A DNA stretch of 64,000 bases from Sideroxydans sp. (GTDB taxonomy: Bacteria; Pseudomonadota; Gammaproteobacteria; Burkholderiales; Gallionellaceae), in the NCBI GenBank assembly GCA_028710605.1, contig JAQTTU010000004.1, forward strand, positions 124,001 to 188,000, read 5' to 3'. Made by a program: the position numbers and the translations under genes. Below, piece by piece: positions 18,602-52,886 of this stretch (position 1 is its first letter; each line of letters opens with the position of its first letter). Below the pieces are notes generated by a model. That model did no database searches, was not told the origin of the DNA, and worked only from the letters and a program-made list of their open reading frames with translations.

Positions 18602-18620
18602 GTTTTTTTTTTTTGGAATT

Positions 18621-20575: not shown

Positions 20576-20579
20576 GAAA

Positions 20580-21275: not shown

Positions 21276-21291
21276 CTGATTTCAAACCTTA

Positions 21292-23512: not shown

Positions 23513-23516
23513 AATT

Positions 23517-30860: not shown

Positions 30861-33156
<2,296 letters not shown>

Positions 33157-35126: not shown

Positions 35127-35276
35127 AAAACTCTCCAATAAAGTCGATAAATGTTAAGTCTAAAGCTACGCAATGCTGCCGGAATTGATGAACTGTCTAT
35201 AGGGTTACGCCCTTGGCTCCACCCATGTTGCGTTCTGCCCCGGAATCATCGCGTTGAAAAATCAAGGAATAAATTG

Positions 35277-35323
35277 CGGAGGGGAAAGGAAAAAAGTTGA
35301 ACTTCCTTCCCTCCCCCTCCGGT
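35277..35323. terminator. Stem-loop after aclA
   Basis: GGAGGGGAAAGGAA-aaaagttgaa-CTTCCTTCCCTCCCCCTCC forms a long G/C- and purine-rich hairpin 20-60 bases past the aclA stop codon on the minus strand. No T-run follows, so it may attenuate or stabilise rather than fully terminate before acn. Confidence 0.5.
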
Positions 35324-38042: not shown

Positions 38043-38070
38043 AGCTTGTCACCTTTGTTCATTGTTCAGT

Positions 38071-38143: not shown

Positions 38144-38148
38144 CTATT

Positions 38149-39555: not shown

Positions 39556-40380
39556 TTAATATTCTTCCGGCAACTCTTTCAACTGCGCCCAGGAATACAC
39601 CGGACCTTTGGTACACACATAATCCTTGCCGACGTTGCAGCGCCCGCATTTGCCCAGACCGCACTTCATCTTGTTCTCGATGGTCGTGTATATCTGCTCG
39701 TCCTTGAACCCGAGTTTGCTCAAGTTCTCGATCACAAACTTGATCATGATGGGCGGGCCGCAGGTAATAGCGATGGTGTTATCCGGCGAGGGTTTTTTGT
39801 CCAACACATTGGCCGGAACAAATCCACAGAACTCTTTCCAGCCATCTTCTGCCTTGTCCACCGACAGTTGAATATTGGCATCGCCGCGCATTCTTTCCAG
39901 TTCCGCCCTGTACATGAGGTCGCGCGGGGAACGGGCACCGTAAAACACGGTGATGTTCTTGAAATCGGCGCGTTGTGCCAGTGCGGTGGTAATCAGCGGC
40001 CAGATCGGCGCAAGACCGACACCGCCGCCGATGAACACCAGGTTTTTGCCTTTCCAGTCATCCAGCGGAAAGCTGTTGCCGTAAGGGCCGCGAATGCCGA
40101 TGACATCGCCGACTTCCAGTTCGTGGAAAGTCGCGCTCACACGCCCCACGCGCATGATGCTGAATTGTTTGTACTCTTTGATCAGCGGCGAAGAAGCGAT
40201 GGAGATCATCATTTCACCGCGACCAAATACCGACAGCATGGCGCATTGACCGCATTCGTGCTTGAAGGTGTCGCCCTCCACCGGTTCGACGCGGAAGGTT
40301 TTGATGGCGCGCTCGCCGCCAATTTCTTCCTTGATGTGAGCGATGCGCGCCAGTTCTGGAAGATAAATGTTATCCGACAT
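39556..40380 (-). CDS. flxA: FlxA-like FAD/NAD(P)-binding oxidoreductase subunit
   Basis: 274 residues of the sulfhydrogenase-gamma/AsrB/FlxA group: FAD domain (HECGQCAMLSVFGRGEMMIS), NAD-binding domain (FIGGGVGLAPIWPLI), and a C-terminal [2Fe-2S] site (KMKCGLGKCGRCNVGKDYVC). It should accept electrons from NAD(P)H and pass them through FlxB to HdrA, or the reverse. It overlaps flxB by 11 bases. The order flxA-flxB-flxC-flxD-hdrA is a recognised module in anaerobes; finding it in a betaproteobacterial TCA operon is unusual. Confidence 0.88.
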   Translation of the reverse strand: MSDNIYLPELARIAHIKEEIGGERAIKTFRVEPVEGDTFKHECGQCAMLSVFGRGEMMISIASSPLIKEYKQFSIMRVGRVSATFHELEVGDVIGIRGPYGNSFPLDDWKGKNLVFIGGGVGLAPIWPLITTALAQRADFKNITVFYGARSPRDLMYRAELERMRGDANIQLSVDKAEDGWKEFCGFVPANVLDKKPSPDNTIAITCGPPIMIKFVIENLSKLGFKDEQIYTTIENKMKCGLGKCGRCNVGKDYVCTKGPVYSWAQLKELPEEY

Positions 40381-41404
40381 GTCCGGTTACCTTGTTTACT
40401 GTATTAATAATATCAATCCCGACCGAGCATTCGGAGATGCAGCGACCGCAGCCGGTGCATTGAGGCATGCCGAAGTTCTCGGGGAAATATTGAAACTTGT
40501 GGCTTACCCGCTGGCGCAATCTGGCTCCCAAGCTTTCGCGCGGGTTGTGGCCGGAAGTGTGCATGGTGAAATCCGGGAACTGGCAATTGTCCCAAGTGCG
40601 CACCCGGTTACCCTTGATCGGCGATGAACCTGTGGACTCGTCGTTGATATCGAAACAGTGGCAAGTCGGGCACAGGAAGGTGCAGACACCGCAGCCGATA
40701 CAAGCACGCGCCAACTCTTCCCACAGCGGCGAATCAAAACTCGCTTTCAGTTTGGCTGGCGCCGCATCCACATCGTTAACCGCGCGTTGCGGCTGTGCCA
40801 CCGCATCGGCGTGGGTTTTCTCCACCAGTTTTTTATCGGCAGCGGTCGGCGCGGTAAATACTTTTGCCGCAGCGGACATCAATGCCTTGCCGGTCTCGGT
40901 AACAGCCGTCACGAAATAGCGATCACCCAGATCGGTCATCAGCACGTCCATGCCCTCGGTGGCAACCGGCGAGCCGCCAACCGACAGACAGAAACAGTTG
41001 CTGCCTTGCGGTTTGTTGCAGGCCAGCCCGACATAAGCCAGATTCTTCCTGCGGTTCTGGTAATACGGATCAGCCACGTGATCGCTGAACACCTTGTCCA
41101 TGCGCACTGCACCCGCGCCGTCGCAAGGACGGACACCGAATACGGCGCGACGGGTAGCCGCCGGCATTTTCTGCGTCAAACGCGGCGGCTCGCCCTTGAT
41201 CTGCTCGAACGAGAAAAACACTTCGCGCTGCGGAAAGGACAATCCCTTGGGCGGCTGCGTGGTGTTGCTGTGATCGAGGCGGACAGCGCCGTCAAGCGGG
41301 TGGTATCCCCAGATGCCGTCTTCCATTGCGGGGGCAAGAATCTCCCACTCGCCTAACGCGGCAATCCAAGCGTCTAACTGAATTTTTTCAAGAATCTTTT
41401 GCAT
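40370..41404 (-). CDS. flxB: FlxB-like 4Fe-4S ferredoxin-type subunit (AsrA/HydB family)
   Basis: 344 residues. After an N-terminal domain (VFFSFEQIKGEPPRLTQKMP, RAVFGVRPCDGAGAVRMDKV) come two clusters, ACIGCGVCTFLCPTCHCFDI and CTGCGRCISECSVGIDI. Relatives are the beta subunit of sulfhydrogenases and AsrA. It relays electrons between FlxA's flavin and the FlxC/FlxD-HdrA side. Co-translated with flxA (11-base overlap) and 4 bases after flxC. Confidence 0.87.
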   Translation of the reverse strand: MQKILEKIQLDAWIAALGEWEILAPAMEDGIWGYHPLDGAVRLDHSNTTQPPKGLSFPQREVFFSFEQIKGEPPRLTQKMPAATRRAVFGVRPCDGAGAVRMDKVFSDHVADPYYQNRRKNLAYVGLACNKPQGSNCFCLSVGGSPVATEGMDVLMTDLGDRYFVTAVTETGKALMSAAAKVFTAPTAADKKLVEKTHADAVAQPQRAVNDVDAAPAKLKASFDSPLWEELARACIGCGVCTFLCPTCHCFDINDESTGSSPIKGNRVRTWDNCQFPDFTMHTSGHNPRESLGARLRQRVSHKFQYFPENFGMPQCTGCGRCISECSVGIDIINTVNKVTGHVG

Positions 41405-41408
41405 GCCG

Positions 41409-42434
41409 TTACCTAATGAATTTTTCGGGATCGTTGTCGAGGAAAGATGCCACCAGCGCAGGCGCTCCGATGCTCGCCCCGGGTTCGTAACCGAACTGTT
41501 CGCGCGCTTCCCGCTCCATCTTGTTGTTGAGCAGACGCAGCGGAATATTCACCGGACACACGCGCTCGCATTCGTTGCAATCCACACAGCGACCGGCCAA
41601 GTGCATGGCGCGGGTCATGTGATAAGTGATGTTTTCCGAACGCACTGCCGAACGTTCGATCCAGCGCACGCGGTTGGCTTTTTCTTCAGCCGTGGTTTGC
41701 GCTGTAACCGGGAAGCTGATGCTGTCCACCACACACTCGTCGCAGAAGCACATCGGACAGACCGAACGGCAGGCAAAACAACGGATGCAACGGTCAAACT
41801 GGCGCTCCCAATAGATCCAGCGTTCTGCGGCATCGCGTTCTTCAAAACGTTTGAGCGCCGCGAACGGCTCGGCCAGTACGCGGCCTGTCTTGTCTTCGCC
41901 CAATACCACGTTGTGTTCTCGCGGATAAGGAATGCGGCATTCCAGGCAACGGTCAGCCATCACCTCGCGCGCTGCGATGCGCTTCTCGCCTTGCGCCGTA
42001 GTAAACACGTAATCGTCGCCGTCGAACGCGGCATTGCTTGCCTGAATTCCCTGGCTGGCGAGCTTGCGTTCATCCAGCACACCCGTGCCCTCGCACGACA
42101 TACCGATGATGTAAACCTCTTCGCGCTTGAAGTAGTGTTCCTGCATCAGCACGACAATGGCGCGGGCATCGCAGCCCTTGGCTACAATGGCGATAGGCAG
42201 GCCGGGCTTGGCACGCGTGTGTGCCAAAAATTTGCGATCTTCGACCAGATACAACGCAAGGTTGTGGAAACAGGTTGGATCCCATACCAGTTCATCGGCC
42301 TGAGCCGCGTCGGTAATCACAACCGGTTCTGCATTCATGCCACTGCTGCCACGGCGGTAACCGATAACGGCGCGCACTTCATTTTTTGCGAGCAAGTCGC
42401 GCGCGGTGTCGCGCATATCTTGAATATTAATCAT
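41409..42434 (-). CDS. flxC: FlxC-like iron-sulfur subunit (FrhB-like N-terminus plus ferredoxin domain)
   Basis: 341 residues. N-terminal half resembles coenzyme F420 hydrogenase beta-type proteins (IAIVAKGCDARAIVVLMQEH, IIGMSCEGTGV). The second half has Cys sets CLECRIPYP, CIRCFACRSVCPMCFCDEC and CVDCNECERVCPVNIP. It links FlxB and FlxD. Overlaps flxD by 4 bases (ATGA). It is the least certain of the Flx set by name, but the gene order supports it. Confidence 0.82.
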   Translation of the reverse strand: MINIQDMRDTARDLLAKNEVRAVIGYRRGSSGMNAEPVVITDAAQADELVWDPTCFHNLALYLVEDRKFLAHTRAKPGLPIAIVAKGCDARAIVVLMQEHYFKREEVYIIGMSCEGTGVLDERKLASQGIQASNAAFDGDDYVFTTAQGEKRIAAREVMADRCLECRIPYPREHNVVLGEDKTGRVLAEPFAALKRFEERDAAERWIYWERQFDRCIRCFACRSVCPMCFCDECVVDSISFPVTAQTTAEEKANRVRWIERSAVRSENITYHMTRAMHLAGRCVDCNECERVCPVNIPLRLLNNKMEREAREQFGYEPGASIGAPALVASFLDNDPEKFIR

Positions 42435-42877
42435 GAACGATCCGCCTTCAATTTAGTCTGCGGTCCGAGCGGTCTCAAATCTTCGACAAAGTCCTTGATG
42501 ACCTGCGAATACTTCGCTCCCTCCGCCGCCGATACCCAGGACATGCGGAAACGATCCTGCTCAACGCCGACAAATCCCAGCAATTCCTTGACCAGATGAA
42601 TCTTGCGCCGTGCCAGATAATTGCCCTCGATGTAATGGCAATCGCCGATATGGCAGCCGGATACCAGAACGCCGTCAGCACCTTTCTTCAACGCGGACAG
42701 GATATACATCGGCGACACGCTGCCCGAACAGGGAACAGTGATCGGTGTCGCATTGGACGGATACTGGATACGCGAAACCCCTGCCAAATCGCTGCCCGCC
42801 GACGAGCACCACTTGCACAGGAAAGCCACGATCCTGGGTTCGTAATCAGTAGTTACTTCAGCTTGTTGTTCCGACAT
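42431..42877 (-). CDS. flxD: FlxD/MvhD-like adaptor subunit
   Basis: 148 residues of the MvhD family, the [2Fe-2S] adaptor that docks an electron-input module onto HdrA. Cys are in AFLCKWCSSAGSDLAG, VPCSGSVSPMYIL and VSGCHIGDCHYIEGN. It sits between hdrA and flxC, just where the adaptor is needed. Start MSEQQAEVTTDYEP with GGAAAGCAG upstream. Confidence 0.9.
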   Translation of the reverse strand: MSEQQAEVTTDYEPRIVAFLCKWCSSAGSDLAGVSRIQYPSNATPITVPCSGSVSPMYILSALKKGADGVLVSGCHIGDCHYIEGNYLARRKIHLVKELLGFVGVEQDRFRMSWVSAAEGAKYSQVIKDFVEDLRPLGPQTKLKADRS

Positions 42878-42894
42878 CTGCTTTCCTTAATTAT

Positions 42895-44844
42895 TTAAGC
42901 CAGGCAGGCTTCGATCATTTCGTGAATCTGCAACGGCGTGGCGTTCTTGACCTCGATGGCGGCGCGCAAACACGTGGCGGAACAACTGCCGCAACCTTCG
43001 CACAACACTTCATTGACCAATGCCTTGCCGTTCTCCAGACTGATCGCATTGTAGGGACACGCGCTCACGCACATTTCGCAGCCGGTGCAGTGCGAATTGC
43101 GCACGCGAGCCACCGTCGGCGCATGACTCAAGGTAGGCTGCGACAACAAGCCGATTACCTTGGAAGCCGCCGCCCCTGCTTGAGCGACTGTTTCTGGAAT
43201 ATCCTTTGGCCCTTGCGCGCAACCGGCGAGGAAGATACCTGCGGTGACGCTCTCTACCGGTTTCAATTTGGGGTGAGCTTCCGCCAGGAAACCGTCCTTG
43301 TCGCGACCGATCTTGAGAGTCTTGGCGATTTCCTCTGTGCCTTTCGACGGCTCCATGGCCAGTGCCAGCACCACCATGTCGGCATCGATCTCCACATTCT
43401 GTCCGGTCAGCGTATCGGTGCCGAGCACCCTGACTTTGCCGCCTTTGCGATAGAGCTTGGATACGCGACCGCGCAAGTAAATCGCCTCGTCATCTTCCAT
43501 GATGCGCTGCACGAATTCTTCGTAGCCTTTGCCGCCGGAACGGATGTCGATGTAGAACACGTAAGCACGGCCATCAGGAACATGGTGCTTGTACAAGCTG
43601 GCGTGCTTGGCGGTGTACATGCAGCAAATCTTGGAGCAGTAAGCGCAGTGGTTGGCAGGATCGCGCGAGCCGACGCACTGGATGAACACCACATCCTTGG
43701 GCACGGTGCGGTCGGACGGTCTCAGCACATGTCCTTTGGTTGCGCCGGAAGCCGAGCACAGACGTTCGAACTGGAGACCATCGAGCACGTCGTCAATCTG
43801 TCCGCCTCCCAACTCGTTCATGTGTTCCTGACCATAGAGGTCGTAACCGGTTGCCACCACGATGGCTCCCACGTCCTCGATCAATGTCTGGGGCCGCATG
43901 TCGTAATTGATCGCGCCGACTTCGCACACGTCCTTACACTTGCCGCAGCGAATCGGATTCAGCCCCAGACAGGCGCTTTCATCCAGCGTGTAGCTGGCCG
44001 GAATGGCTTGCGCGAACGGGATATGGATGGCGCGGCGCGCGGTCAGGCCGAGATCGAATTCGTTCGGTACAACAACCGGACACACGTTGGCGCAATCGTC
44101 GCAAATCTTGCACAGTTCGGGATCAACGTAAGTGGGTTTCTTCAGGATATTGACGCGGAAGTTACCCACCGAACCGCTGACTTCTTTCACTTCGCTGTAA
44201 GTCAGCAACGTGATGTTGGGATGGCGTGAAACATCCACCATCTTGGGCGACAAGATGCACTGCGAGCAGTCCAGCGTTGGAAAGGTTTCGGAGAGTTGCA
44301 GCATGTGTCCGCCGATGGTGGCCTGCTTTTCTACCAGAATCACTTGCAGTCCGGCATTGGCAATATCGAGCGCGGCTTGAATACCGGCGATGCCGCCGCC
44401 TATCACCAGCACCTTGCGCGTAACCGGAACTGCGATTGGCTCCAACGCTTGATCGCGTCCTGCACGGCGCACGGCGCTGCGCGAGATCTTGATCGCCTTT
44501 TCGGTCGCACGCTCCTTATCCTTATGCACCCAAGCGCACTGTTCGCGGATGTTGGCGATCTCGCAAGTGAAGCTGTTCAGCCCTGCTCGTTTGGCATTGT
44601 CGCGGAACGTTTTTTCGTGCAAATTCGGCGAACAACAGGAGATTACCACGCTGTCCAGATTGTTGTCCTTGATGGACTGAATTACTGCGTTCTGCCCCGG
44701 ATCGGAGCACATGTAAACGTAGTCCTGAGAGTAGGCGACACCTTCCTCGGTGCCCATCACTTCGGCCACCTTTTTCACGTCAACAGTGGCTGCGATGTTG
44801 TTACCGCAGTGGCAGACGAAAACGCCTGTGCGTTTTTTCGTCAT
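42895..44844 (-). CDS. hdrA: Heterodisulfide reductase subunit A-like flavoprotein
   Basis: 649 residues. N-terminal VFVCHCGNNIAATVDV, then FAD domain (VLVIGGGIAGIQAALDIANAG, ~147), and four cysteine clusters: CKICDDCANVCP, CGKCKDVCEVGAINYD, CTGCEMCVSACPYNAI and CEGCGSCSATCLRAAIE. In methanogens and in FlxABCD-HdrABC, HdrA holds the bifurcating flavin, splitting a pair of electrons between ferredoxin and a high-potential acceptor. It overlaps korC by 4 bases, so it is translated with the 2-oxoglutarate:ferredoxin oxidoreductase, a direct ferredoxin consumer. I infer bifurcation; the flavin chemistry cannot be read from sequence. Confidence 0.93.
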   Translation of the reverse strand: MTKKRTGVFVCHCGNNIAATVDVKKVAEVMGTEEGVAYSQDYVYMCSDPGQNAVIQSIKDNNLDSVVISCCSPNLHEKTFRDNAKRAGLNSFTCEIANIREQCAWVHKDKERATEKAIKISRSAVRRAGRDQALEPIAVPVTRKVLVIGGGIAGIQAALDIANAGLQVILVEKQATIGGHMLQLSETFPTLDCSQCILSPKMVDVSRHPNITLLTYSEVKEVSGSVGNFRVNILKKPTYVDPELCKICDDCANVCPVVVPNEFDLGLTARRAIHIPFAQAIPASYTLDESACLGLNPIRCGKCKDVCEVGAINYDMRPQTLIEDVGAIVVATGYDLYGQEHMNELGGGQIDDVLDGLQFERLCSASGATKGHVLRPSDRTVPKDVVFIQCVGSRDPANHCAYCSKICCMYTAKHASLYKHHVPDGRAYVFYIDIRSGGKGYEEFVQRIMEDDEAIYLRGRVSKLYRKGGKVRVLGTDTLTGQNVEIDADMVVLALAMEPSKGTEEIAKTLKIGRDKDGFLAEAHPKLKPVESVTAGIFLAGCAQGPKDIPETVAQAGAAASKVIGLLSQPTLSHAPTVARVRNSHCTGCEMCVSACPYNAISLENGKALVNEVLCEGCGSCSATCLRAAIEVKNATPLQIHEMIEACLA

Positions 44845-45404
44845 GATGCTGCTCCAGCCGCGTTAATGGCTTCGAGACCATGGTTATAGCCTTTCTCGAA
44901 TGCCTTGATGTTGATTTTCAGGAATCGGTCTGGAACCAGTCCTGGCAACGCTTTTTTCATAGCATCGTCAGTCACCACTTTGGTCACTGCGGTAAGGAAA
45001 CCCAGCGCCACAAGGTTGGTAAACAGGCGGTTGCCCAATTCCTCAGCGAAGCGGGTTGCCGGTACGCGATACAACTTGAGATTGGTATGCTCGGACTGCA
45101 ACTTCACCAAGTCATTTTCGACAATCAGTACTCCGCCGTCGGGCAGTTCGCTGTAATACTTGTCATAGGCTTCCTGCGACAGAGCCATGAGAATGCCGGG
45201 ATGGGTGATATAAGGATAGAGGATACGGCTGTCCGACACCACGAGCTGGGCGGCGCAGGCACTGCCGCGTGCCTCCGGGCCGAAGCTCTGGGTCATGGTG
45301 GCGAACTTGTCGTCATACAACGACAGCGCCTTACCCGTGATCAGGGCACAGCGAATGATGCCCTGTCCGCCGAATCCTGAAAATCTGATTTCTTGCGTGC
45401 TCAT
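44841..45404 (-). CDS. korC: 2-Oxoglutarate:ferredoxin oxidoreductase gamma subunit
   Basis: 187 residues of the POR/KOR gamma family: IRFSGFGGQGIIRCALITGK at the N-terminus and TQSFGPEARGSACAAQLVVS in the middle. CoA-binding subunit of the enzyme that carboxylates succinyl-CoA with reduced ferredoxin. Ends in a 4-base overlap with hdrA and begins 11 bases after korB. Confidence 0.92.
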   Translation of the reverse strand: MSTQEIRFSGFGGQGIIRCALITGKALSLYDDKFATMTQSFGPEARGSACAAQLVVSDSRILYPYITHPGILMALSQEAYDKYYSELPDGGVLIVENDLVKLQSEHTNLKLYRVPATRFAEELGNRLFTNLVALGFLTAVTKVVTDDAMKKALPGLVPDRFLKINIKAFEKGYNHGLEAINAAGAAS

Positions 45405-45415
45405 GCGCTCGTTTC

Positions 45416-46654
45416 CTACTTACGGGTTTTCTTGACGGAAGGCTTGGCTGTCGCTTTCTTTGCAGCAGCTTTGACAACAGTTTTAGTTGCGGCTTTTTTT
45501 GCCACAGCTTTAACAGCCATCTTGGGTGCAGCCTTTTTTGCAGTCGCAGTTGCAGCCTTCTTCGCTGTTTTTGCCGGTACTTTGGCCGCCGTTTTCTTGG
45601 CAGGAGTTGCTTCCTTGACTGCAGTTTTCTTCACAACCTTGGCAGCAACTTTCTTGGCTGCTGTCTTGACCGGAATCTTGGCTGAGACCTTGGTCACGGC
45701 TGGCTTGTTTTCTTCCGCAAGAACAGCTGCACGGCGAGCAGCAATCCGCTCTTTCTCTGCTTTGGCTTCGGCTTCACGCTCGGGAATAGTCTTGCCATAA
45801 AGCTGGTAATCATCGCCCACTAATTTGACGCAGCACTTGTCCACTGCTTCCAGATACGTTGGCTTTTGTTTATCGACAAACTTGCCGATGACAATTTTGC
45901 CCTGGAAGTCAATCGCTGTTTCGCGGGTGTCCGCGCCATGCTTAAGAATGGTTTTTTCCTGATAGTCCTGAAGCATGTCAACGCCGTCGCCCAGACGGTT
46001 GCGGCGCAGGTAGAGCGTGGTGCAAGGCGAAACAATTTCAATGAACGAGAAACCTTTGCGCTGCAACGCCTCTTCGATGGATTGGGTTACGTTGCGAGCG
46101 TGCATTGATGTCCAGCGCGCAATGTAAGTACCACCGGCGGCATCGACCAGGAACGGCAAACTGAACGGATATTCGTAGTTGCCGTAAGGCGTGGTCGAGG
46201 CGATGGCTGAATTGGGAGTGGTCGGTGTGACCTGACCGCCTGTCATGCCGTAAGTAAAGTTGTTGTTGCAAATAACGATCAAATCCATGTTGCGTCGTGC
46301 AGCATGAATCAGATGGTTGCCGCCGATACCGGTCAGGTCACCCTCTCCGCTGAACACCACCACGGTCAATTCCGGGTTGGCCAGCTTGACACCGGTGGCC
46401 ACAGGAATGGCGCGACCATGTGTAGTGTGAATCGAGTCGAAATCGACATAACCCGCCACGCGGCCGGTACAGCCGATACCCGACACCACCACCAGTTTCT
46501 TGGGGTCGATACCGCTGCGTTTGACGGCCTCGGCAAATGCATTCACCTCGGATCCGATACCGCAGCCGGGACACCAGATATGCGGCATGCGATCCATGCG
46601 CAGCACGCCGGACATGGGGCTTTCCGACTTAAATTTTTTAATATCAGTACTCAT
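45416..46654 (-). CDS. korB: 2-Oxoglutarate:ferredoxin oxidoreductase beta subunit with histone-H1-like tail
   Basis: 412 residues. The first ~290 are a normal KorB: MPHIWCPGCGIGSEVNAFAE, VFSGEGDLTGIGGNHLIHAA and CNNNFTYGMTGGQVTPT (ThDP/Mg site), CGIG cluster Cys. Residues ~300-412 are a Lys/Ala-rich tail (KTAAKKVAAKVVKKTAVKEA and similar to the end, VKKTRK) of the kind seen in bacterial histone-H1-like proteins. KorB usually ends near 290. The frame is continuous and korC follows 11 bases later, so the tail is not a sequencing artefact of read-through into a neighbour. Its job could be DNA, RNA or acidic-partner binding. Confidence 0.93.
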   Translation of the reverse strand: MSTDIKKFKSESPMSGVLRMDRMPHIWCPGCGIGSEVNAFAEAVKRSGIDPKKLVVVSGIGCTGRVAGYVDFDSIHTTHGRAIPVATGVKLANPELTVVVFSGEGDLTGIGGNHLIHAARRNMDLIVICNNNFTYGMTGGQVTPTTPNSAIASTTPYGNYEYPFSLPFLVDAAGGTYIARWTSMHARNVTQSIEEALQRKGFSFIEIVSPCTTLYLRRNRLGDGVDMLQDYQEKTILKHGADTRETAIDFQGKIVIGKFVDKQKPTYLEAVDKCCVKLVGDDYQLYGKTIPEREAEAKAEKERIAARRAAVLAEENKPAVTKVSAKIPVKTAAKKVAAKVVKKTAVKEATPAKKTAAKVPAKTAKKAATATAKKAAPKMAVKAVAKKAATKTVVKAAAKKATAKPSVKKTRK

Positions 46655-47820
46655 TATTTATTTGCCTTTCTGATCGCGTCCAGAATGACTTCGGGATCGT
46701 GCACGGCACCACCGCAGTGATTGACGCTGATGACTTCGCTGCGTCCATGCGCGCAACGCTCAACCTCGCGCACCATCTGTCCATAGTTGATTTCTGGAAC
46801 CACAAATGCCTTCACCTTGCCCGACAATTCGTTGATGCGTTTTTCGCAGAACGGCCAGATGGTAATCAGGCGCAGCGAACCGACTTTGATGCCTTCCTTG
46901 CGCGCATCCTGAATCGCCTTGACCGCAATGCGGGACGTTATGCCGTAGGAAACCACCACAATATCTGCACCTTCAACCTGATCCTCTTCGAGGCGAATGA
47001 TGTCGTCGGCATTGCTGTTGATCTTTTCCATCAGATGCGTCACAACGATCTTGCCCTGATCGGCTGTCATCACCGGATAGCCCATTTCGTTGTGTACCAA
47101 ACCTGTGATATGGAAATTGTATCCATCACCGGCGCGCACCATGGGATGACCGCCCTTGCTGTCGAACTTGTAGGGACGGCAATCCTCTTTGGGGCCGCTG
47201 TAGTTGTTGCGCGGAACAACTTTGATCTTGTCGGCTGGCGGTATTACCACCTTCTCGTGCATGTGCCCGACGGTTTCGTCGGTCAGAATAATGACGGGAA
47301 CGCGGTAGTATTCAGACAGGTTGAATGCTTCAACAGTAAGGTCGAAACATTCCTGCGGGCTGTCCGGGCACAAGGCAATGATTGCGTTGTCGCCGTGCGG
47401 GCCGTATTTAGCCTGCATCATGTCCTGTTGCGCCGTCAACGTAGGCAAGCCTGTTGATGGACCGCCGCGCTGCACGTTGGCGATCACCAGCGGGGTCTCG
47501 GTCATGGCTGCCAACCCGAGGTTTTCCGTCATCAACGAGAAGCCCGGGCCGCAAGTTACAGTCATACATTTTTGTCCGGCCCATGCCGCGCCAATCAGGG
47601 CAGCGATTGAAGCGAGTTCATCCTCCATTTGAATGAACAAGGCACCCACTTCAGGAGCACGCTCGGCAAAACGCTCGGCGGTTTCGGTCGATGGCGTGAT
47701 GGGATAACCGGCAAAGAAGCGGCAGCCGGCTGCAAGCGCGCCTTCGGCGAGCGCATGGTCGCCGTCCATGAAATGTGGGCCTGAATCTACGCCCTTAGGA
47801 TCTGCGGATACTGTCTTCAC
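46654..47820 (-). CDS. korA: 2-Oxoglutarate:ferredoxin oxidoreductase alpha subunit
   Basis: 388 residues: GDHALAEGALAAGCRFFAGY (YPITPSTE follows), QMEDELASIAALIGAAWAGQ, TCGPGFSLMTENLG, VNVQRGGPST-type region, and the C-terminal INYGQMVREVERCAHG. Holds half the ThDP site with KorB. Overlaps korD by 4 bases and korB by 1, so the subunits are translationally coupled. Runs the reductive carboxylation of succinyl-CoA when ferredoxin is reduced; the oxidative direction is served by SucAB at 14-18 kb. Confidence 0.94.
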   Translation of the reverse strand: MKTVSADPKGVDSGPHFMDGDHALAEGALAAGCRFFAGYPITPSTETAERFAERAPEVGALFIQMEDELASIAALIGAAWAGQKCMTVTCGPGFSLMTENLGLAAMTETPLVIANVQRGGPSTGLPTLTAQQDMMQAKYGPHGDNAIIALCPDSPQECFDLTVEAFNLSEYYRVPVIILTDETVGHMHEKVVIPPADKIKVVPRNNYSGPKEDCRPYKFDSKGGHPMVRAGDGYNFHITGLVHNEMGYPVMTADQGKIVVTHLMEKINSNADDIIRLEEDQVEGADIVVVSYGITSRIAVKAIQDARKEGIKVGSLRLITIWPFCEKRINELSGKVKAFVVPEINYGQMVREVERCAHGRSEVISVNHCGGAVHDPEVILDAIRKANK

Positions 47821-48080
47821 TTTTCTGTTTCCCCTTTCTTACTTTCGTCATCTCGTGTCACGAAGATAGAAAACTCCGGACAAATCATTTGGCAATATCT
47901 GCAATCGTGGCATTTCTCAGGATTCTTGGCGTAGGGCGGGTGATAGCCCTTGGCGTTGTATTCGGGAGAAATGTCCAGCACGTTGGTCGGACAGAACTGC
48001 ACGCAGAAACCGCAGCCCTTGCACCAGTTTTCGTTGACATATACATTGCCGTGAAGCTGTTTTAGTTCATTGAAAAACAT
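47817..48080 (-). CDS. korD: 2-Oxoglutarate:ferredoxin oxidoreductase delta subunit (two 4Fe-4S ferredoxin)
   Basis: 87 residues from ATG 48080 (MFFNELKQLHGNVYV), preceded by GAGGGAGGCTGC. Two clusters: CKGCGFCVQFCPTNVL and CHDCRYCQMICPEFSI. A dedicated ferredoxin-like subunit carrying electrons to the KorB cluster. The frame extends upstream to 48131 inside hdrB; rejected for lack of homology. Confidence 0.92.
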   Translation of the reverse strand: MFFNELKQLHGNVYVNENWCKGCGFCVQFCPTNVLDISPEYNAKGYHPPYAKNPEKCHDCRYCQMICPEFSIFVTRDDESKKGETEK

Positions 48081-48090
48081 GCAGCCTCCC

Positions 48091-48969
48091 TCAGTCCAGT
48101 CCGCGCGCCGCCAAGGCGGGGATTGGATCAATGTGATTTAGTTCGAACCCGAGTGCTTCTTCGCCACAATCGAGAGCCAGAGCCATCAACTGGGTGAAGT
48201 ACAGCACCGGTAAATGCTTGAAATCGGGATTGAGGCGCTTCGCATCGTCCTGACGGAAATCCAGGTTGTATGCACACATCGGGCAGCTCACCACCACCAT
48301 ATCCACATCCCCTTCGCTGGCCGAACCCATTATTTTGTCGGTGCGATCAGCGATGATTTCAGGGGAAGCGACAGCATGATACGCACCACAACACTCGGTC
48401 TTGAGCGGGAAATTTACTGGCGTTGCACCGAGTGCGGCAACCAGATTTTCCATAATCATGGGATTCTCGACATCATCAAAGGCGACCTCTTTCGGGCGCA
48501 CCAGCAAACAACCGTAGTAGCAGGCCACACGCAATCCCTTGAGCGGCTTTTTCACCTTTTCTGCGAGTTTGTCGAAACCGACACGGTCGCGCACATATTC
48601 GAGCAAATGCAGCACATCCACATCGCCCTCGTATTTCGTGGTTTCGAGGTTCAGGAATTCATTGATGGTTGACAGCTTTTCTGGATTCTTTTTTACGTCG
48701 TTATTGGCACGCTTGAGCGTGTTGTAACACATGGCGCAGGAAGTCATGAACTCGTTGGACTGTGCTTCCTTGACACGAATCAAATTGGTTACCGGCGCAA
48801 CGCGGTTCATTACATTTTCTGCACCAAGCGCATGCACCGTGCCGCAGCAATTCCAGCGCTCAAGTTCTTCAACTTCCACGTCCAAGCGCGCCATGGACGA
48901 AACCGTGGAAACGTCAAAATTTCTGGCGCTATTCTTCAGCGTGCATCCGGGATAGTAAATTAGTTTCAT
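48091..48969 (-). CDS. hdrB: HdrB-like subunit with two CCG domains
   Basis: 292 residues from MKLIYYPGCTLKNSARN (an overlapping ATG at 48990 adds seven residues). The two CCG cysteine sets, YPGC/NCCG/SCAMC and CYYGC/ECCG/SCPMC, bind noncubane [4Fe-4S] clusters in heterodisulfide reductase. Here the substrate need not be a heterodisulfide: the gene pair hdrCB lies 0.6 kb from frdAB, the arrangement of HdrB/C-like subunits in thiol:fumarate reductase and in soluble fumarate reductases of Aquificales. It may therefore be the last carrier to FrdB, with HdrA upstream. Upstream gene hdrC ends 20 bases away. Confidence 0.9.
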   Translation of the reverse strand: MKLIYYPGCTLKNSARNFDVSTVSSMARLDVEVEELERWNCCGTVHALGAENVMNRVAPVTNLIRVKEAQSNEFMTSCAMCYNTLKRANNDVKKNPEKLSTINEFLNLETTKYEGDVDVLHLLEYVRDRVGFDKLAEKVKKPLKGLRVACYYGCLLVRPKEVAFDDVENPMIMENLVAALGATPVNFPLKTECCGAYHAVASPEIIADRTDKIMGSASEGDVDMVVVSCPMCAYNLDFRQDDAKRLNPDFKHLPVLYFTQLMALALDCGEEALGFELNHIDPIPALAARGLD

Positions 48970-48989
48970 CGGTATGTTTTCGCTTCCCA

Positions 48990-49406
48990 TCAAGAGGTCA
49001 GTTTGCGCATGGCGCTGATCGTGGCGATCGGCGGCAAATCGCTGCGCACTTCAGGGGAAATCTCCCATATTTTGAGGCGGTCATCGCGCTGCCCATTGCG
49101 CAAGGCTGTCTCGCGCAGCGACTCGATAACCTCGGCAATGTGAATATTCTTCGGGCAACGCGAGTTGCAAGTCAGGCAGGACACGCAAGTCCAGATCGTG
49201 CGCGAAGCCAGCAACTGCTTCTGCATGCCCAGTTGTGCCATACGGATAATCTGGTTTGGCAATATATCCATGTAAGCCGCCATCGGGCAACCGGCCGAAC
49301 ATTTGCCGCACTGGTAACAAGCCAGCAATTTTTGGCCGCTGATCTTTTCGATTTTGGCCACAAAAGATCTGCTGACGCTGGAGGAGAGACGCATGGTCGT
49401 ATTCAT
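48990..49406 (-). CDS. hdrC: HdrC-like iron-sulfur subunit
   Basis: 138 residues; two [4Fe-4S] motifs ACYQCGKCSAGCP and CVSCLTCNSRCPKNI. HdrC relays electrons from HdrA to HdrB. ATG 49406 is supported by GAAAGG 5 bases upstream; an in-frame ATG at 49394 is possible. In FrdABCDE-type enzymes the counterpart is FrdC. Spacing of 10 bases from the rubrerythrin-like gene upstream puts it firmly in the operon. Confidence 0.9.
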   Translation of the reverse strand: MNTTMRLSSSVSRSFVAKIEKISGQKLLACYQCGKCSAGCPMAAYMDILPNQIIRMAQLGMQKQLLASRTIWTCVSCLTCNSRCPKNIHIAEVIESLRETALRNGQRDDRLKIWEISPEVRSDLPPIATISAMRKLTS

Positions 49407-49416
49407 GGCTGGCCTT

Positions 49417-49950
49417 TCAGAACTTCGCGTCCATGCGGAACTCGGGACTGTCCAGCCACAGGCCGGTATTAATCACACTGTCCAGTTGCGCTTGAAGGTT
49501 GTCATACTGATAGCATTCCCCTTCAATCATCTTGCCCACCAATTTAATGATGTCCGAATCGCTGGTATGCGAAGCAAGCTCTTTGAACAGATGAATCAGC
49601 CGCCGCTCCATTTCCATGGCAAGGCGCAACGCTTGGGTATCGTCGGCAACGACGCTATGGCCGCGACGGGCAACTTCCGCTTCCATCGCGTCAATCACCA
49701 CTGACGGATGAGTATTTGCCGATTCTTCTGCAACCAACCGCTGCCACTCTTCCTTGCCCATCAGGTTGCCGAATAAACTGTGCAAATCTTCCATGCGATC
49801 AGTTTCTTCTTCAGCCAAGCGCAGGAACATTTTTTTCCCGTTCGCATTTCGCGTCATTTCAGCAGCATGGCGGTAAAAATGCTCACCGCCGAATTCGAAG
49901 CTGAGCGCGGTGCGCGCCAGCTCGATCACTTTGTCATCAGTATGGCTCAT
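49417..49950 (-). CDS. Rubrerythrin/ferritin-like di-iron protein
   Basis: 177 residues, a four-helix-bundle pattern with EFGGEHFYRHAAE, RLAEEETDRMEDLHSL and LAMEMERRLIHLFKEL plus EGECYQYD, giving E...E..H motifs of a di-iron site. No rubredoxin domain is present. Placed between frdA and hdrC with 5- and 10-base gaps. The likely role is removing peroxide or oxygen near oxygen-sensitive iron-sulfur enzymes, or buffering iron for them. Function inferred from fold only. Confidence 0.8.
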   Translation of the reverse strand: MSHTDDKVIELARTALSFEFGGEHFYRHAAEMTRNANGKKMFLRLAEEETDRMEDLHSLFGNLMGKEEWQRLVAEESANTHPSVVIDAMEAEVARRGHSVVADDTQALRLAMEMERRLIHLFKELASHTSDSDIIKLVGKMIEGECYQYDNLQAQLDSVINTGLWLDSPEFRMDAKF

Positions 49951-49955
49951 CGGAT

Positions 49956-51683
49956 TTACTTCGCTCCTGCTGGACTGAACGCATCGTCATGCAGTCGGTT
50001 TTGCAACACCGACGTACCCGGCAGCGTGTTTCCTCCGCGCACCAACTGGCGTTTTTTGACATCTTTTGGGGCGTAAGACGGCAACAGGATGGGAGTAACC
50101 AGATCGGTTTGCACATTGGCATCAGCCAATTGTTTTTCGTACGCATCGAGATGCGCCACGCTGAGCTTGCCGAGTTTGACCGACTTGGCGTATTCGCTGG
50201 CGTATTTGCCCGCGCGACGACCAAACACGTTGTAGTCGAGCACCGAATTACCCATCAGACGATTACGGCCATGCAAACCACCGGATGCTTCTCCTGCCAC
50301 ATACAAGCCTGGCAAGTCGGTTTCGCAACGCTCGTTAATTTCGATACCGCCATTCTGATAATGCAGCGACGGGTAGATCAACATCGGCAGCTTGGTAATA
50401 TCGATGCCGTAGCGGATGAACTGGCGATACATTGCCGGGAAGTGTCTTTCGGTGTAGCCCTCGCCGTGCAGCATGTCAATCAGCGGAGAATCCAGCCAGA
50501 CACCAACACGCCCCGACGGGGTTGGGACACCGCCGCCGTTTTGTACGCACTCGCGGATGATGGCTGAAGCTTCGATGTCGCGCGGCTCGCGCGGGAAGAC
50601 AAACAGTTCGCCATCCTTATTCAGCGGCTGTCCACCAGCACCGCGAATTGCCTCAGTAACCAAGAAGCCCGCAATTTGCTCGGGGAACGATACCCCGGTT
50701 GGGTGATACTGAACGGAGTCCATGTACATCAACTTCGCGCCAGCGCGGTAGGCCATCACCAGTCCGTCGCCAGTTGCACCATAGTGATTGGTAGTGTCAT
50801 AACCGCGAATATGCAAGCGACCATACCCACCAGTTGCAACAATAGTGGACTTTGCCTTGACTGTAATGAACTCCTCGCTGTCCATGTTATACAGAACAGC
50901 GCCAGCGCATTGGCCTTTGTCGTCCATAATCAATTCAACGGCCGGCATGAATTCCTTGACTTCAATCATGTCAGGATGGTTTCGCACCTCGTCCATCAGG
51001 GTGCGCATAATCATGGCTCCCGTATAGTCACGGCACGAAACCATGCGCTTGCGAGATGTACCGCCACCGTGCATGACCTTCATCGAACCGTCTTCTTCCT
51101 TGTCCCACACTACGCCAAGGTCTTCCAGCCATTTGACTACACCAGGGCCATCCTCTGTAAGGGCTTTAACCAGTTCCGGCTTATTCTCGAAGTGTCCGCC
51201 GCCAATGGCATCCAGATAGTGGCGGGTCGGCGAATCGGTACGCGAGACCGCAGCCTGCATGCCCCCTTGGGACATCATCGTGTTGGCATCACCCATGCGC
51301 AGTTTGGTGGCAATCACGGAACGTACGCCATGTTCGCGCATTGCGACCAGAGCGGCATTGCATCCGGCACCGCCGCCACCAATAATCAAAACATCCGTCT
51401 CGATGTCCGGCTTGGTCAAGTCAACCTGTTCACTGCGCAACCAGGAGTGGGATTCAAGCAAATCAGCCACTTCGGTGGTCAGCGTCTCCCCTTTATTCGG
51501 GCCGACGCATACGGCACGGCGAGCGCTGGGCTCATAATCTGGGTGAAAACCTTCCAGCACCTTTTGGCGCTCTTCCGCATCCATCGGCGGATAAACCGGA
51601 CCGGATTTTCTTGCCAATTCCAAACGCTTGGGTCGAGTCTCGACCACCTTGCGCAACGATTCTGCCATGTAATCTGGATACAT
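49956..51683 (-). CDS. frdA: Fumarate reductase/succinate dehydrogenase-type flavoprotein
   Basis: 575 residues. The N-terminal ~95 residues are a leader not seen in SdhA; then FAD binding VLIIGGGGAGCNAALVAMRE, the MMSQGGMQAAV region, VQYHPTGVSFPEQIAGFLVT, and HGRNRLMGNSVLDYNVFG. It differs clearly from SdhA at 21.7-23.5 kb and lacks nearby membrane anchors, so the enzyme is likely soluble or peripheral. The His that binds FAD covalently in SdhA (SHT) is not at the equivalent place (DANTMMSQGG), in keeping with soluble fumarate reductases. It ends 5 bases before the rubrerythrin-like gene. Confidence 0.9.
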   Translation of the reverse strand: MYPDYMAESLRKVVETRPKRLELARKSGPVYPPMDAEERQKVLEGFHPDYEPSARRAVCVGPNKGETLTTEVADLLESHSWLRSEQVDLTKPDIETDVLIIGGGGAGCNAALVAMREHGVRSVIATKLRMGDANTMMSQGGMQAAVSRTDSPTRHYLDAIGGGHFENKPELVKALTEDGPGVVKWLEDLGVVWDKEEDGSMKVMHGGGTSRKRMVSCRDYTGAMIMRTLMDEVRNHPDMIEVKEFMPAVELIMDDKGQCAGAVLYNMDSEEFITVKAKSTIVATGGYGRLHIRGYDTTNHYGATGDGLVMAYRAGAKLMYMDSVQYHPTGVSFPEQIAGFLVTEAIRGAGGQPLNKDGELFVFPREPRDIEASAIIRECVQNGGGVPTPSGRVGVWLDSPLIDMLHGEGYTERHFPAMYRQFIRYGIDITKLPMLIYPSLHYQNGGIEINERCETDLPGLYVAGEASGGLHGRNRLMGNSVLDYNVFGRRAGKYASEYAKSVKLGKLSVAHLDAYEKQLADANVQTDLVTPILLPSYAPKDVKKRQLVRGGNTLPGTSVLQNRLHDDAFSPAGAK

Positions 51684-51694
51684 CTAATTCCCCT

Positions 51695-52438
51695 TTATTC
51701 CGAATCTCGGGCGTAGTAACGTTTCGATAAAGCTTCGCGGTTCATCGACATCATTTCGGCGTATTCCGCCTCATAAACGCCATCATTGACAGCCTTGACG
51801 CGCTCCACCAATTCGTGGCTTTCCTTGCGCAGGTAACGACCATAGAGGCGTTTTGCCATAATCCCCATCAGAGGCTGCGTGATTTCCGCCGGACAGCGCA
51901 GCATGCACAGCCCACAAACGACGCAGTCGAAGGACAAATCCATGACTTCAGCAATATCGCCGCGTTTGGCAGCCTGAACATAGTCCATGACTTGAAGACC
52001 TTGCGGGCAGGATTTGGTGCAAGTGTTGCACGCCACACAGCGAAACACCGTGGGGTACATTTCCTGAATAGCCGTTACGTTTGGTTTGAGCTTCTCGATG
52101 TCGTAGATCGCTTTTTCGGCAGGAACCGAGGGAATCTGAGCCAGAGTCATACCCTCTTCAACCATGGTCATGCAGGCTAAACCGGTACGAATCTTGTAGT
52201 CGCCAGGAAGGCGATAGATAGTGGCGCAGGCTCCGCAATATCCTTCGCGACAACCTGCCCCACGAATAATCTGATGACCAGCATATTCGATGGCACCCAT
52301 AATGGTTGCCTCGGCCGGCACCTCATAGGCTTTGCCCATAATGTAAACCGTAATCAAGCGACCCAAGGCCTGATCTTGCTGCCCATCCAACTGCGAAGGC
52401 GACAAACTCTCCTTCGCCCCTGCCGGTGCGTTCACCAT
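51695..52438 (-). CDS. frdB: Fumarate reductase iron-sulfur subunit
   Basis: 247 residues; [2Fe-2S] site in GAGCREGYCGACATIYRL, then CVACNTCTKSCPQGL and CVVCGLCMLRCPAEIT. Transfers electrons from HdrBC-type partners (inferred) to FrdA. First gene of the minus-strand reductive TCA operon, 11 bases before frdA. ATG follows AGGGGAGACAG. No sdhC/D- or frdC/D-type membrane anchor gene is adjacent. Confidence 0.9.
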   Translation of the reverse strand: MVNAPAGAKESLSPSQLDGQQDQALGRLITVYIMGKAYEVPAEATIMGAIEYAGHQIIRGAGCREGYCGACATIYRLPGDYKIRTGLACMTMVEEGMTLAQIPSVPAEKAIYDIEKLKPNVTAIQEMYPTVFRCVACNTCTKSCPQGLQVMDYVQAAKRGDIAEVMDLSFDCVVCGLCMLRCPAEITQPLMGIMAKRLYGRYLRKESHELVERVKAVNDGVYEAEYAEMMSMNREALSKRYYARDSE

Positions 52439-52886
52439 ATCTTCTGTCTCCCCTGAACCTAACCTTTTTGCCGCACAGCGGCCTGAGTTTAGGTTTACGT
52501 TTTGCGATTACAACAAATCGGCCGCCAGACACTTAATAACATATGCGATCAATTATAAATTTTCTCGCAACCGATTATGAATTTTTGTTGGCGGCGATTA
52601 TAAAGAAGTTTGCGAGATTGACAAGGGGGTTTTAATAATGGGGTATTAAAAAATGCAATAGATCAAATTTCAGGACTTTAAGACAAACAGTAATTGTCGT
52701 TTTTAAATTCTAATAGTGGTTAATATTGCTCAATATTTTATTATTTACTTCATTTTCATTAGTTGATAATTTCACTCCATCACTCATTTTCGGTCTATTT
52801 TGAGGGCTCAATGACATAGAATTCTCAAATCGCCAAGCATACTTAAATCGAGAAAATTTTTATACCGACTTCAAGGAATTCAACGC
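52439..52886. other. AT-rich divergent regulatory region between frdB and citE-like gene
   Basis: 448 bases without an ORF of note, far richer in A+T than its flanks. It should hold the control sites for the rightward CitE-like gene and the leftward 21.6-kb operon. Apart from the promoter at 52597-52624 I see nothing I can assign. Confidence 0.65.
52597..52624 (-). promoter_or_regulatory. Likely promoter of the reductive TCA operon
   Basis: On the minus strand TTGTCA (52619-52624), 16-base spacer, TATAAT (52597-52602): five of six and six of six matches to the sigma-70 consensus. It would start ~150 bases before the frdB ATG, leaving a long untranslated leader. A search by eye for an FNR-type TTGAT-N4-ATCAA site gave none. 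Confidence 0.55.

What the first reader, a model, noticed from the sequence alone, without database searches (positions are those of the whole stretch)
39556..52438. Possible bifurcating complex coupling fumarate reduction to ferredoxin-driven 2-oxoglutarate synthesis
Fourteen tightly packed genes (no gap above 20 bases) encode, in order, FrdB, FrdA, a rubrerythrin-like protein, HdrC, HdrB, KorDABC, HdrA, FlxD, FlxC, FlxB and FlxA. In known Flx-Hdr systems, NADH oxidised by FlxA reaches the HdrA flavin, which sends one electron to ferredoxin and one to HdrBC. In those systems the high-potential acceptor is a disulfide; here HdrBC sits next to FrdAB. If HdrBC passes electrons to FrdAB, then 2 NADH + fumarate + Fd(ox) would give succinate + Fd(red), and Fd(red) is used by KorABCD, whose genes lie inside the same operon. 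Two reductive TCA steps would power each other. I know of no described case of this exact operon.
Basis: partly seen in the sequence, partly recalled or inferred. Interest (0 to 1): 0.93.

Follow-up and report, generated by a model that had tools for sequence, protein, structure and literature searches.

The report
NADH-driven fumarate reductase carbon-fixation operon
A run of sixteen genes in an iron-oxidiser-like bacterium probably uses NADH to reduce fumarate and, in the same act, to make the high-energy ferredoxin that the cell needs to fix CO2; the gene set and the idea have been published for other bacteria, so this is a new example and not a discovery.

Summary

The claim that no such operon is described is wrong. 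Rubin-Blum et al. 2019 (PMC6315080) describe the same cluster in tubeworm symbionts, Thioflavicoccus and a MAG that I recovered (L044, identical 14-gene order), and propose direct electron delivery from Flx-Hdr to OGOR and the Tfr-type fumarate reductase. Mitchell 2024 shows co-expression (tfrAB excepted). A Kor-free clostridial version is also in print (PMC7282089).

New here is a comparative test. The Frd-Hdr link survives at least five gene orders. In Clostridia, 37 of 38 loci with enough flank carry hdrBCA-flxDCBA-frdBA; Kor is in none of the 38, fumarase in 21. FrdA has Asn in place of the flavin-binding His in 80 of 80 rows; all ten HdrB cluster cysteines are kept in 41 of 41 aligned.

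There is no biochemistry, and in this organism a DsrC disulfide cannot be excluded. New member of a known kind.

The parts
51695..52438 (-). frdB (TfrB N-part-like): 2Fe-2S plus two 4Fe-4S motifs, 247 aa
   Evidence: Cys 63,68,71,89 / 134,137,140,144 / 172,175,178,182 invariant in the 47 sequences aligned; AlphaFold2 model of pLDDT 80 gave no convincing full-length PDB match
49956..51683 (-). frdA (TfrA-like fumarate reductase flavoprotein), 575 aa
   Evidence: TfrA 349 bits, cut-off 718; HPT, HY and NR motif columns kept, flavinylation His replaced by Asn in 80 of 80 rows
49417..49950 (-). rubrerythrin-like protein
   Evidence: PF02915; found in 32 of 80 loci, all proteobacterial
48990..49406 (-). 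hdrC, two 4Fe-4S clusters
48091..48978 (-). hdrB, two CCG stretches (two non-cubane clusters expected)
   Evidence: ten CCG cysteines invariant in the 41 sequences aligned; model pLDDT 92 matches HdrB 7bkb_B with TM 0.88
47817..48092 (-). korD
46654..47820 (-). korA (2-oxoacid:ferredoxin oxidoreductase alpha)
   Evidence: 541 bits, cut-off 411; 1yd7 2-keto acid:ferredoxin oxidoreductase alpha 372 bits, 8ys5 2-oxoglutarate synthase alpha 283 bits
45416..46654 (-). korB with Ala/Lys-rich C-terminal tail
44841..45404 (-). korC
42895..44844 (-). hdrA flavoprotein, 649 aa
   Evidence: 8rvu_a HdrA, 651 bits over residues 3-648
42431..42877 (-). flxD / mvhD
   Evidence: PF02662
41409..42434 (-). flxC
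   Evidence: Fe-S motifs only
40370..41404 (-). flxB
39556..40380 (-). flxA (NAD-binding, DHODB-type Fe-S)
38149..39429 (-). aclA: ATP-grasp plus citrate-binding subunit of ATP-citrate lyase
   Evidence: citryl-CoA synthetase large subunit 128 bits; PF16114
35340..38042 (-). aclB: N-part like citryl-CoA synthetase small subunit, C-part weakly like citryl-CoA lyase
   Evidence: 120 bits; citryl-CoA lyase model 19 bits, cut-off 193; no Pfam match at 1e-8
52597..52624 (-). promoter-like site upstream of frdB
   Evidence: 11 of 12 matches; a consensus match only
35277..35321 (-). terminator-like 20-pair stem after aclB
   Evidence: a consensus match only
33180..35138 (-). aconitase (rTCA neighbour)
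30861..33089 (-). monomeric isocitrate dehydrogenase (rTCA neighbour)

Best explanation
The operon encodes a soluble, flavin-based electron-bifurcating NADH:fumarate/ferredoxin oxidoreductase (FlxABCD-HdrABC-FrdAB) together with its low-potential consumer, 2-oxoglutarate:ferredoxin oxidoreductase (KorABCD), and ATP-citrate lyase. NADH is oxidised at FlxA. Electrons pass through FlxBC and FlxD to the HdrA flavin. One of each pair goes through HdrC-HdrB to the Fe-S chain of FrdB and the non-covalent FAD of FrdA, which reduces fumarate. The other goes to ferredoxin (or directly to KorD), which drives succinyl-CoA + CO2 to 2-oxoglutarate. The net 2 NADH + fumarate + 2 Fd(ox) to succinate + 2 Fd(red) gives one fumarate reduction per OGOR turnover, exactly the ratio of one turn of the reductive TCA cycle. 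Shown by sequence: the genes, their families, cofactor ligands, operon layout, the recurrent Frd-Hdr linkage and its Kor-free form. Inferred: the complex, bifurcation, direct HdrB-to-FrdB transfer, direction.
For: Of 31 loci with at least 9 kb on both sides of frdA, 28 have hdrA, 28 hdrB and 27 hdrC; 7 of the 28 with hdrA lack Kor. Gene order differs while the partners stay together: frdBA-rbr-hdrCB-kor-hdrA-flx (window, L044; L053 without rbr), hdrCB-kor-hdrA-flx-frdBA (L037; L047 and L064 from hdrB on, at the locus edge), kor-hdrCB-hdrA-mvhD-frdBA (L057, L078), hdrCBA-mvhD-frdBA (L063), hdrB-kor-hdrA-flx-acl...frdBA-hdrC (L055/L206, one contig). In 391 genomes of the class of L068 (Clostridia) 54 have the FrdB; of the 38 loci with at least 9 kb upstream, 37 read hdrB-hdrC-hdrA-flxDCBA-frdB-frdA, Kor 0 of 38, class II fumarase 21 of 38 (the query fumarase passes its model's cut-off). 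DsrC over the cut-off in 0 of 15 of these 54 genomes tested, with one match below it in G333. FrdA: flavinylation His replaced by Asn in 80 of 80 rows, while the genome's own SdhA has His. HdrB: all ten cluster cysteines in 41 of 41 aligned. TfrB is a natural FrdB+HdrB fusion: the window's FrdB and HdrB map to its two halves. Co-expression of the cluster, tfrAB excepted, in Endoriftia (PMC11636981, passages). Energetics by hand with +33 and -320 mV (passages) and -500 mV for ferredoxin (recalled): about -33 kJ/mol.
Against: No biochemistry or complex structure for this arrangement appears in the passages I read. In Endoriftia tfrAB was the exception to the shared expression pattern. FrdB is only a weak TfrB/SdhB match (37.5 bits) and its model has no good PDB match. 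HdrB keeps its cluster cysteines, so it could still act on a disulfide, and the window's genome has three DsrC-family genes over the cut-off. Two loci with full flanks have frdBA without any hdr gene nearby (L045, which keeps flxCBA and whose genome I did not search, and L070, an archaeon). Three proteobacterial MAGs with frdBA-hdrC show no close HdrA (G546, G548, G551; possibly incomplete). The genome also has a covalent-type SdhA with SdhB in the window and three RnfC, alternative routes to succinate/fumarate chemistry and to ferredoxin.
Confidence: 0.6

Rival explanations
1. Thiol-mediated version: Flx-HdrABC bifurcates NADH to ferredoxin and a protein disulfide (DsrC-like), and the dithiol then reduces fumarate through FrdAB, or the disulfide has its own use. 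HdrBC and FrdAB would not form one electron path.
For: Known Flx-Hdr systems are proposed to use DsrC (passage of PMC4215793); Mitchell 2024 keeps a DsrC-like route as an alternative. All HdrB cluster cysteines are kept. The window's genome has three DsrC-family genes over the cut-off, and 5 of 5 family members with the module that were tested (own genome included) have DsrC.
Against: No DsrC match lies in the operon. DsrC is over the cut-off in 0 of 15 tested Clostridia genomes with the same module.
Confidence: 0.17
2. Plain NADH-dependent fumarate reductase: the Flx-Hdr chain carries both electrons to FrdAB without bifurcation, like the soluble five-subunit enzyme of Hydrogenobacter thermophilus; ferredoxin for Kor comes from Rnf or another source.
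For: The genome has three RnfC over the cut-off. A soluble NADH-dependent fumarate reductase serves the rTCA cycle of H. thermophilus (recalled, Miura 2008, not read; FrdA-E are listed for Aquifex in PMC10052474, passage).
Against: HdrA aligns over residues 3-648 of 649 with solved methanogen HdrA (651 bits), which bifurcate (recalled). KorA lies in the same locus in 38 of 80 loci, which asks for a local ferredoxin source.
Confidence: 0.12
3. Quinone-linked type-E (SdhABE/MfrABE-like) enzyme: FrdBA with HdrB as CCG membrane anchor, unrelated to HdrA-Flx.
For: HdrB also matches the MfrE/SdhE model (171 bits).
Against: That model's cut-off of 500 is not reached; the match to HdrB is equally strong (174 bits, cut-off 345 also not reached), and the model has TM 0.88 to HdrB structures. 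An hdrC is present. FrdA lacks the covalent-flavin His. HdrA and Flx or MvhD travel with frdBA across phyla.
Confidence: 0.06
4. Reverse direction: the complex works as a confurcating succinate oxidiser or 2-oxoglutarate oxidiser in a heterotrophic or mixotrophic mode.
For: All single steps are reversible in principle; the window also has oxidative TCA genes.
Against: Loss of the flavinylation His favours fumarate reduction (recalled from E. coli FrdA work). Separate SdhAB, SucAB and GltA genes in the same window can serve oxidation. ACL lies next on the same strand.
Confidence: 0.05

Closest known systems
rTCA gene cluster of tubeworm symbionts, Thioflavicoccus mobilis and MAG RIFOXYD12_FULL_61_37 (Rubin-Blum 2019, PMC6315080; text parts 1 and 2 of 3 read, supplements not)
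   Same: tfrAB, rbr, hdrABC, korABCD, flxABCD and aclAB in one cluster; identical 14-gene order in the RIFOXYD12 MAG (L044). The authors already propose a complex that sends electrons to OGOR and thiol:fumarate reductase.
   Different: Host lineage: the window is a Gallionellaceae-type betaproteobacterium. RuBisCO is also present here, as in the tubeworm symbionts and Thioflavicoccus.
'Succinate operon' of Pseudoclostridium thermosuccinogenes (PMC7282089, passages; [quoted passage not shown]
   Same: Flx-Hdr genes with frdAB; proposed ferredoxin reduction coupled to fumarate reduction.
   Different: Has a fumarate hydratase gene; no Kor or ACL is named in that operon; fermentative.
FlxABCD-HdrABC of Desulfovibrio (Ramos 2015, recalled; cited in PMC7282089 and PMC5861303)
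   Same: Same seven kinds of subunit.
   Different: Acceptor held to be a disulfide (DsrC); no frd or kor in the operon (recalled).
Thiol:fumarate reductase TfrAB of Methanothermobacter (Heim 1998, recalled)
   Same: FrdA type, and FrdB linked to an HdrB-like part.
   Different: There FrdB and HdrB are fused (TfrB model) and the donor is CoM-SH/CoB-SH (recalled); here they are split and joined by hdrC, hdrA and flx. Cut-offs not reached.
Cloacimonadota (Ca. Celaenobacter) TFR-OGOR-Mvh-Hdr cluster (PMC8542988, passage)
   Same: Tfr, Kor and Hdr genes together.
   Different: Hydrogenase (Mvh) instead of Flx as donor module.
Fdh-HdrABC-formylmethanofuran dehydrogenase complex 7bkb (PDB title)
   Same: Bifurcating Hdr physically joined to the enzyme that consumes the low-potential electrons.
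   Different: That consumer is formylmethanofuran dehydrogenase, not Kor; a precedent only.

Membership tests
rTCA flx-hdr-kor-tfr cluster (Rubin-Blum 2019) | same genes in the same order as a published member | tested here: met
   L044 is the MAG named in the paper and has the window's 14-gene order
rTCA flx-hdr-kor-tfr cluster (Rubin-Blum 2019) | ATP-citrate lyase in the cluster | tested here: met
   aclA and aclB at 35340-39429; 'type II' is recalled and from the paper, no call tests it
FlxABCD-HdrABC | HdrA, HdrB with two CCG stretches, HdrC, MvhD-like FlxD, FlxBC, NAD-binding FlxA | tested here: met
FlxABCD-HdrABC | NADH oxidation with ferredoxin reduction | not testable with these tools
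   needs enzyme assay
FlxABCD-HdrABC | DsrC-type disulfide as acceptor | tested here: inconclusive
   three DsrC genes in the window's genome, none in the operon; DsrC over the cut-off in 0 of 15 tested Clostridia with the module
CoB-CoM heterodisulfide reductase (NCBIfam equivalogs) | curated cut-offs for HdrA, HdrB and HdrC | tested here: not met
   HdrA 626 against 1400 (HdrA2 810 against 1100), HdrB 174 against 345, HdrC 78 against 160 bits: Hdr-like, not the methanogen enzyme
Thiol:fumarate reductase TfrAB | NCBIfam equivalog cut-offs for TfrA and TfrB | tested here: not met
   349 against 718 and 37.5 against 385 bits
Thiol:fumarate reductase TfrAB | FrdB and HdrB parts fused in one protein | tested here: not met
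   separate genes, with frdA, rbr and hdrC between them
Thiol:fumarate reductase TfrAB | non-covalent FAD | tested here: met
   Asn at the flavinylation column in 80 of 80 FrdA rows; inferred from sequence
Type-E SdhABE/MfrABE | MfrE/SdhE equivalog cut-off | tested here: not met
   171 against 500 bits
Four-subunit OGOR (KorABCD) | all four subunits present, alpha over its model cut-off | tested here: met
   KorA 541 over 411 bits (2-oxoacid:acceptor oxidoreductase alpha); the other three match below their cut-offs
Four-subunit OGOR (KorABCD) | 2-oxoglutarate rather than another 2-oxoacid as substrate | not testable with these tools
   inferred from ACL next to it and from published clusters

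The most novel reading that the evidence does not exclude
FlxABCD (or MvhD-linked) HdrABC-FrdAB is a general, widely shared class of electron-bifurcating fumarate reductase, the fumarate counterpart of butyryl-CoA dehydrogenase-Etf. In reductive-TCA autotrophs KorABCD has been recruited into the same complex, so that fumarate reduction and 2-oxoglutarate synthesis are locked 1:1 in one machine: 2 NADH + fumarate + succinyl-CoA + CO2 to succinate + 2-oxoglutarate + CoA.
Probability: 0.35. Interest if true: 0.75.

Novelty: new member of a known kind. Interest (0 to 1): 0.42.

Why it matters
How reductive-TCA bacteria supply low-potential ferredoxin is called unresolved in a 2023 paper (PMC10052474, passage). 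If fumarate reduction pays for the ferredoxin that OGOR uses, the cycle's two reductive steps balance each other without a membrane potential, which would change its energy budget. The kor-free clostridial module (54 of 391 genomes of that class) makes the fumarate half testable in cultured fermenters, and the same logic would explain extra ferredoxin in succinate fermentation.

Tried and rejected
Rejected: 'categorically new', because the cluster and the hypothesis are in print. Rejected: that proteobacterial loci with frdBA-hdrC but no hdrB beside it (L038, L046, L054, L055, L056, L061; L051 lacks a found hdrC too) are all counter-examples: L055 is a permuted cluster on one contig, and the genomes of L051, L056 and L061 hold pieces of kor-hdrA-flx-acl on other contigs; L046, L038 and L054 stay unexplained (L054 ends 570 bases after frdA). 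Led nowhere: the mirror-tree style correlation of identities (only 12 loci without missing values); the FrdB fold search (weak matches only); promoter and terminator counts, which do not exceed shuffles. The quick FrdA tree (66 rows, near-copies thinned by me) needs only 2 changes of the Kor label over 46 labelled rows, but cannot say gain or loss; L051 and L056 were labelled kor-plus from pieces on other contigs.

Rows dropped before counts: FrdA residue counts use the window and 79 of 80 loci (one locus under 75% coverage); HdrB uses 41 of 56 available sequences; FrdB uses 47 of 77, L037 left out for an internal stop. My first ORF caller took antisense ORFs in GC-rich loci; I used the tblastn maps instead. 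The clostridial gene I call Mdh (29 of 38) is named L-lactate dehydrogenase by NCBIfam, over that model's cut-off; an Arg at the specificity position would favour malate (recalled rule), so it is given no weight. The L185 hydratase pair is named L-tartrate dehydratase and is likewise not counted as fumarase. Literature: all 10 searches of the library were used. None of the 15 papers listed (of 36) names Gallionellaceae, which is no proof of absence.
Full report
What is there. The 14 genes are intact, in the order FrdB, FrdA, rubrerythrin-like, HdrC, HdrB, KorD, KorA, KorB, KorC, HdrA, FlxD, FlxC, FlxB, FlxA, on the minus strand, with distances of -11 to +17 bases. Family searches agree, though most matches lie under the curated cut-offs of the named equivalogs. 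The same strand continues with aclA and aclB after 126 and 106 bases: aclA carries the citrate-binding domain and aclB begins like the small subunit of citryl-CoA synthetase. Aconitase and monomeric isocitrate dehydrogenase follow. The best promoter-like site lies before frdB and the strongest terminator-like stem after aclB, although such sites are not more frequent than in shuffled sequence. The natural unit is therefore probably 16 genes, not 14.

Whose genome. The nearest named relatives of FrdA are Gallionellaceae/Sideroxydans MAGs at 98%. In 150 genomes of the window's family, 21 (the own genome included) have a close FrdB (E at most 2.1e-129, at least 82% identity), so the trait is patchy. 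The own genome has one RuBisCO large subunit, no second KorA-like match except one in a 1665-aa frame of pyruvate:ferredoxin oxidoreductase size, three RnfC over the cut-off, three DsrC-family matches over the cut-off, and oxidative TCA genes (sdhAB, gltA, sucAB) in the same window. It is thus a likely dual CBB/rTCA organism that also has oxidative TCA genes.

Prior art. Rubin-Blum et al. 2019 (PMC6315080; text parts 1 and 2 of 3 read) describe conserved clusters with aclAB, korABCD, tfrAB, rbr and flxABCD-hdrABC in tubeworm symbionts, T. [quoted passage not shown] That MAG is among my loci (L044) with the window's 14-gene order. Mitchell et al. 2024 (PMC11636981, outline and passages) report co-expression of the cluster, tfrAB excepted, and note KorABCD between HdrA and HdrBC. 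Winkel et al. 2016 (PMC4914600, passages) saw a frdA/sdhA gene beside hdr genes in Thiomargarita. PMC8542988 (passages) reports a Tfr-OGOR-Mvh-Hdr cluster in Cloacimonadota. PMC7282089 (passages) treats a clostridial operon of fumarate hydratase, Flx-Hdr and FrdAB as bifurcating and cites a 2019 preprint for it.

A comparative test of the idea. One scan of the genome collection gave 239 relatives of FrdA, of which 80 were kept. At least one hdr gene lies in 69 of 80 loci, many of them cut by contig ends. Of the 31 with at least 9 kb on both sides, hdrA is present in 28 and KorA in 21. The three without hdrA are L045 (which keeps flxCBA), L055 (a permuted cluster whose hdrB-kor-hdrA-flx lies further along the same contig, L206) and L070, an archaeon. 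Gene order differs between phyla: frd before hdr-kor-hdrA-flx in proteobacteria; frd at the end in Aminicenantes and Coatesbacteria; kor first and no flxABC in two Cloacimonadota loci; no kor found in the Zixibacteria locus (4.7 kb upstream seen). Linkage that survives so many rearrangements argues for a functional unit.

The Kor-free form is the sharpest test, because it removes the second ferredoxin enzyme and leaves Frd with Hdr-Flx. In 391 genomes of the class of L068 (a Lachnospiraceae MAG), 54 have a clostridial-type FrdB, all at E 1.9e-81 or lower with no match between that and the 1e-20 limit. I had the surroundings of all 54 (L068 plus 53 fetched regions). Of 38 with at least 9 kb upstream of frdB, 37 read hdrB-hdrC-hdrA-flxD-flxC-flxB-flxA-frdB-frdA; one (L185) has frdBA-hdrBCA without flx. 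Kor is in 0 of 38, class II fumarase in 21 of 38, an LDH/MDH-family dehydrogenase in 29 of 38 (names). DsrC is over the cut-off in 0 of 15 such genomes tested (one weaker match, in G333), and RnfC in 10 of 15. So HdrBC goes with FrdAB where no Kor lies beside it and, in those tested, no DsrC is at hand.

Residue evidence. The His and Thr of the HPT motif, the His of the HY motif and the Arg of the NR motif (roles in catalysis recalled) are kept in 79-80 of 80 FrdA rows, but the His that binds FAD covalently in SdhA is Asn in 80 of 80, whereas the genome's own SdhA has His. This is expected of a soluble enzyme that works towards succinate (inference; the E. coli work behind it is recalled). HdrB keeps all ten CCG cysteines in the 41 sequences aligned, and its model (pLDDT 92) matches HdrB of 7bkb at TM 0.88. 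FrdB has four 2Fe-2S cysteines and two complete 4Fe-4S sets invariant in the 47 aligned, so its third cluster is probably 4Fe-4S and not the 3Fe-4S of quinone-linked enzymes (inference). FrdB is weakly similar to known proteins and its name rests on TfrB (37.5 bits), cofactor order and its place beside frdA.

Mechanism. NADH to FlxA, through FlxBC and FlxD to HdrA; one electron to ferredoxin and Kor, one through HdrC-HdrB to FrdB-FrdA. The FrdB-HdrB fusion in TfrB suggests that such an electron path exists in nature. The stoichiometry fits the cycle: one fumarate and one succinyl-CoA are reduced per turn, and a bifurcating enzyme delivers exactly two ferredoxin electrons per fumarate. With +33 mV for fumarate and -320 mV for NADH (passages) and -500 mV for ferredoxin (recalled), the coupled reaction yields about -33 kJ/mol (computed by hand). 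None of the steps from NADH to fumarate is shown for this complex.

Verdict. The mechanistic idea is the best reading and is better supported after the comparison than before. The system and the proposal are known, so this is a new member of a known kind, of moderate interest as a betaproteobacterial case and for the modular evidence.

Noticed in passing
window 26747-30676 (+): 1310 aa protein with a GT4-conflict glycosyltransferase-like domain, weaker STAND NTPase and TPR matches: a likely conflict or defence protein between idh and mdh.
   Followed up: no
window 52887-53885 (+): HpcH/HpaI aldolase-family (CitE-like) gene divergent from frdB; a possible citryl- or malyl-CoA lyase relative beside the rTCA operon.
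   Followed up: no
window 14318-23587 (-) and 24580-25560 (+): Oxidative TCA genes (sucA, sucB, gltA, sdhB, sdhA) and mdh lie in the same window as the reductive TCA operon.
   Followed up: partly
L044 9178-21695: Mosaic cluster: HdrCB-Kor-HdrA 75-85% identical to the window, but FrdBA 66-72% and FlxCBA 57-69%, as if the core had been swapped by recombination.
   Followed up: no
window 45416-46654 (-): KorB has an Ala/Lys-rich C-terminal extension of about 100 residues (412 aa; against 289 aa in L037 and 321 in L044).
   Followed up: no
G010, G044, G062, G064 (no close FrdB) and G011, G019, G027 (with it): A second FrdB-like protein, about 28-33% identical to the window's, occurs in family members with and without the operon.
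   Followed up: no
L060, L058; genome of L070: The Cloacimonadota frdBA locus L060 sits among several hdrA/mvhD copies, L058 beside one; the genome of L070 has 55 matches to HdrA.
   Followed up: no
L048: Acidobacteria locus with hdrCB-kor-hdrA-flxD running straight into frdBA without flxCBA, another donor-module variant.
   Followed up: no
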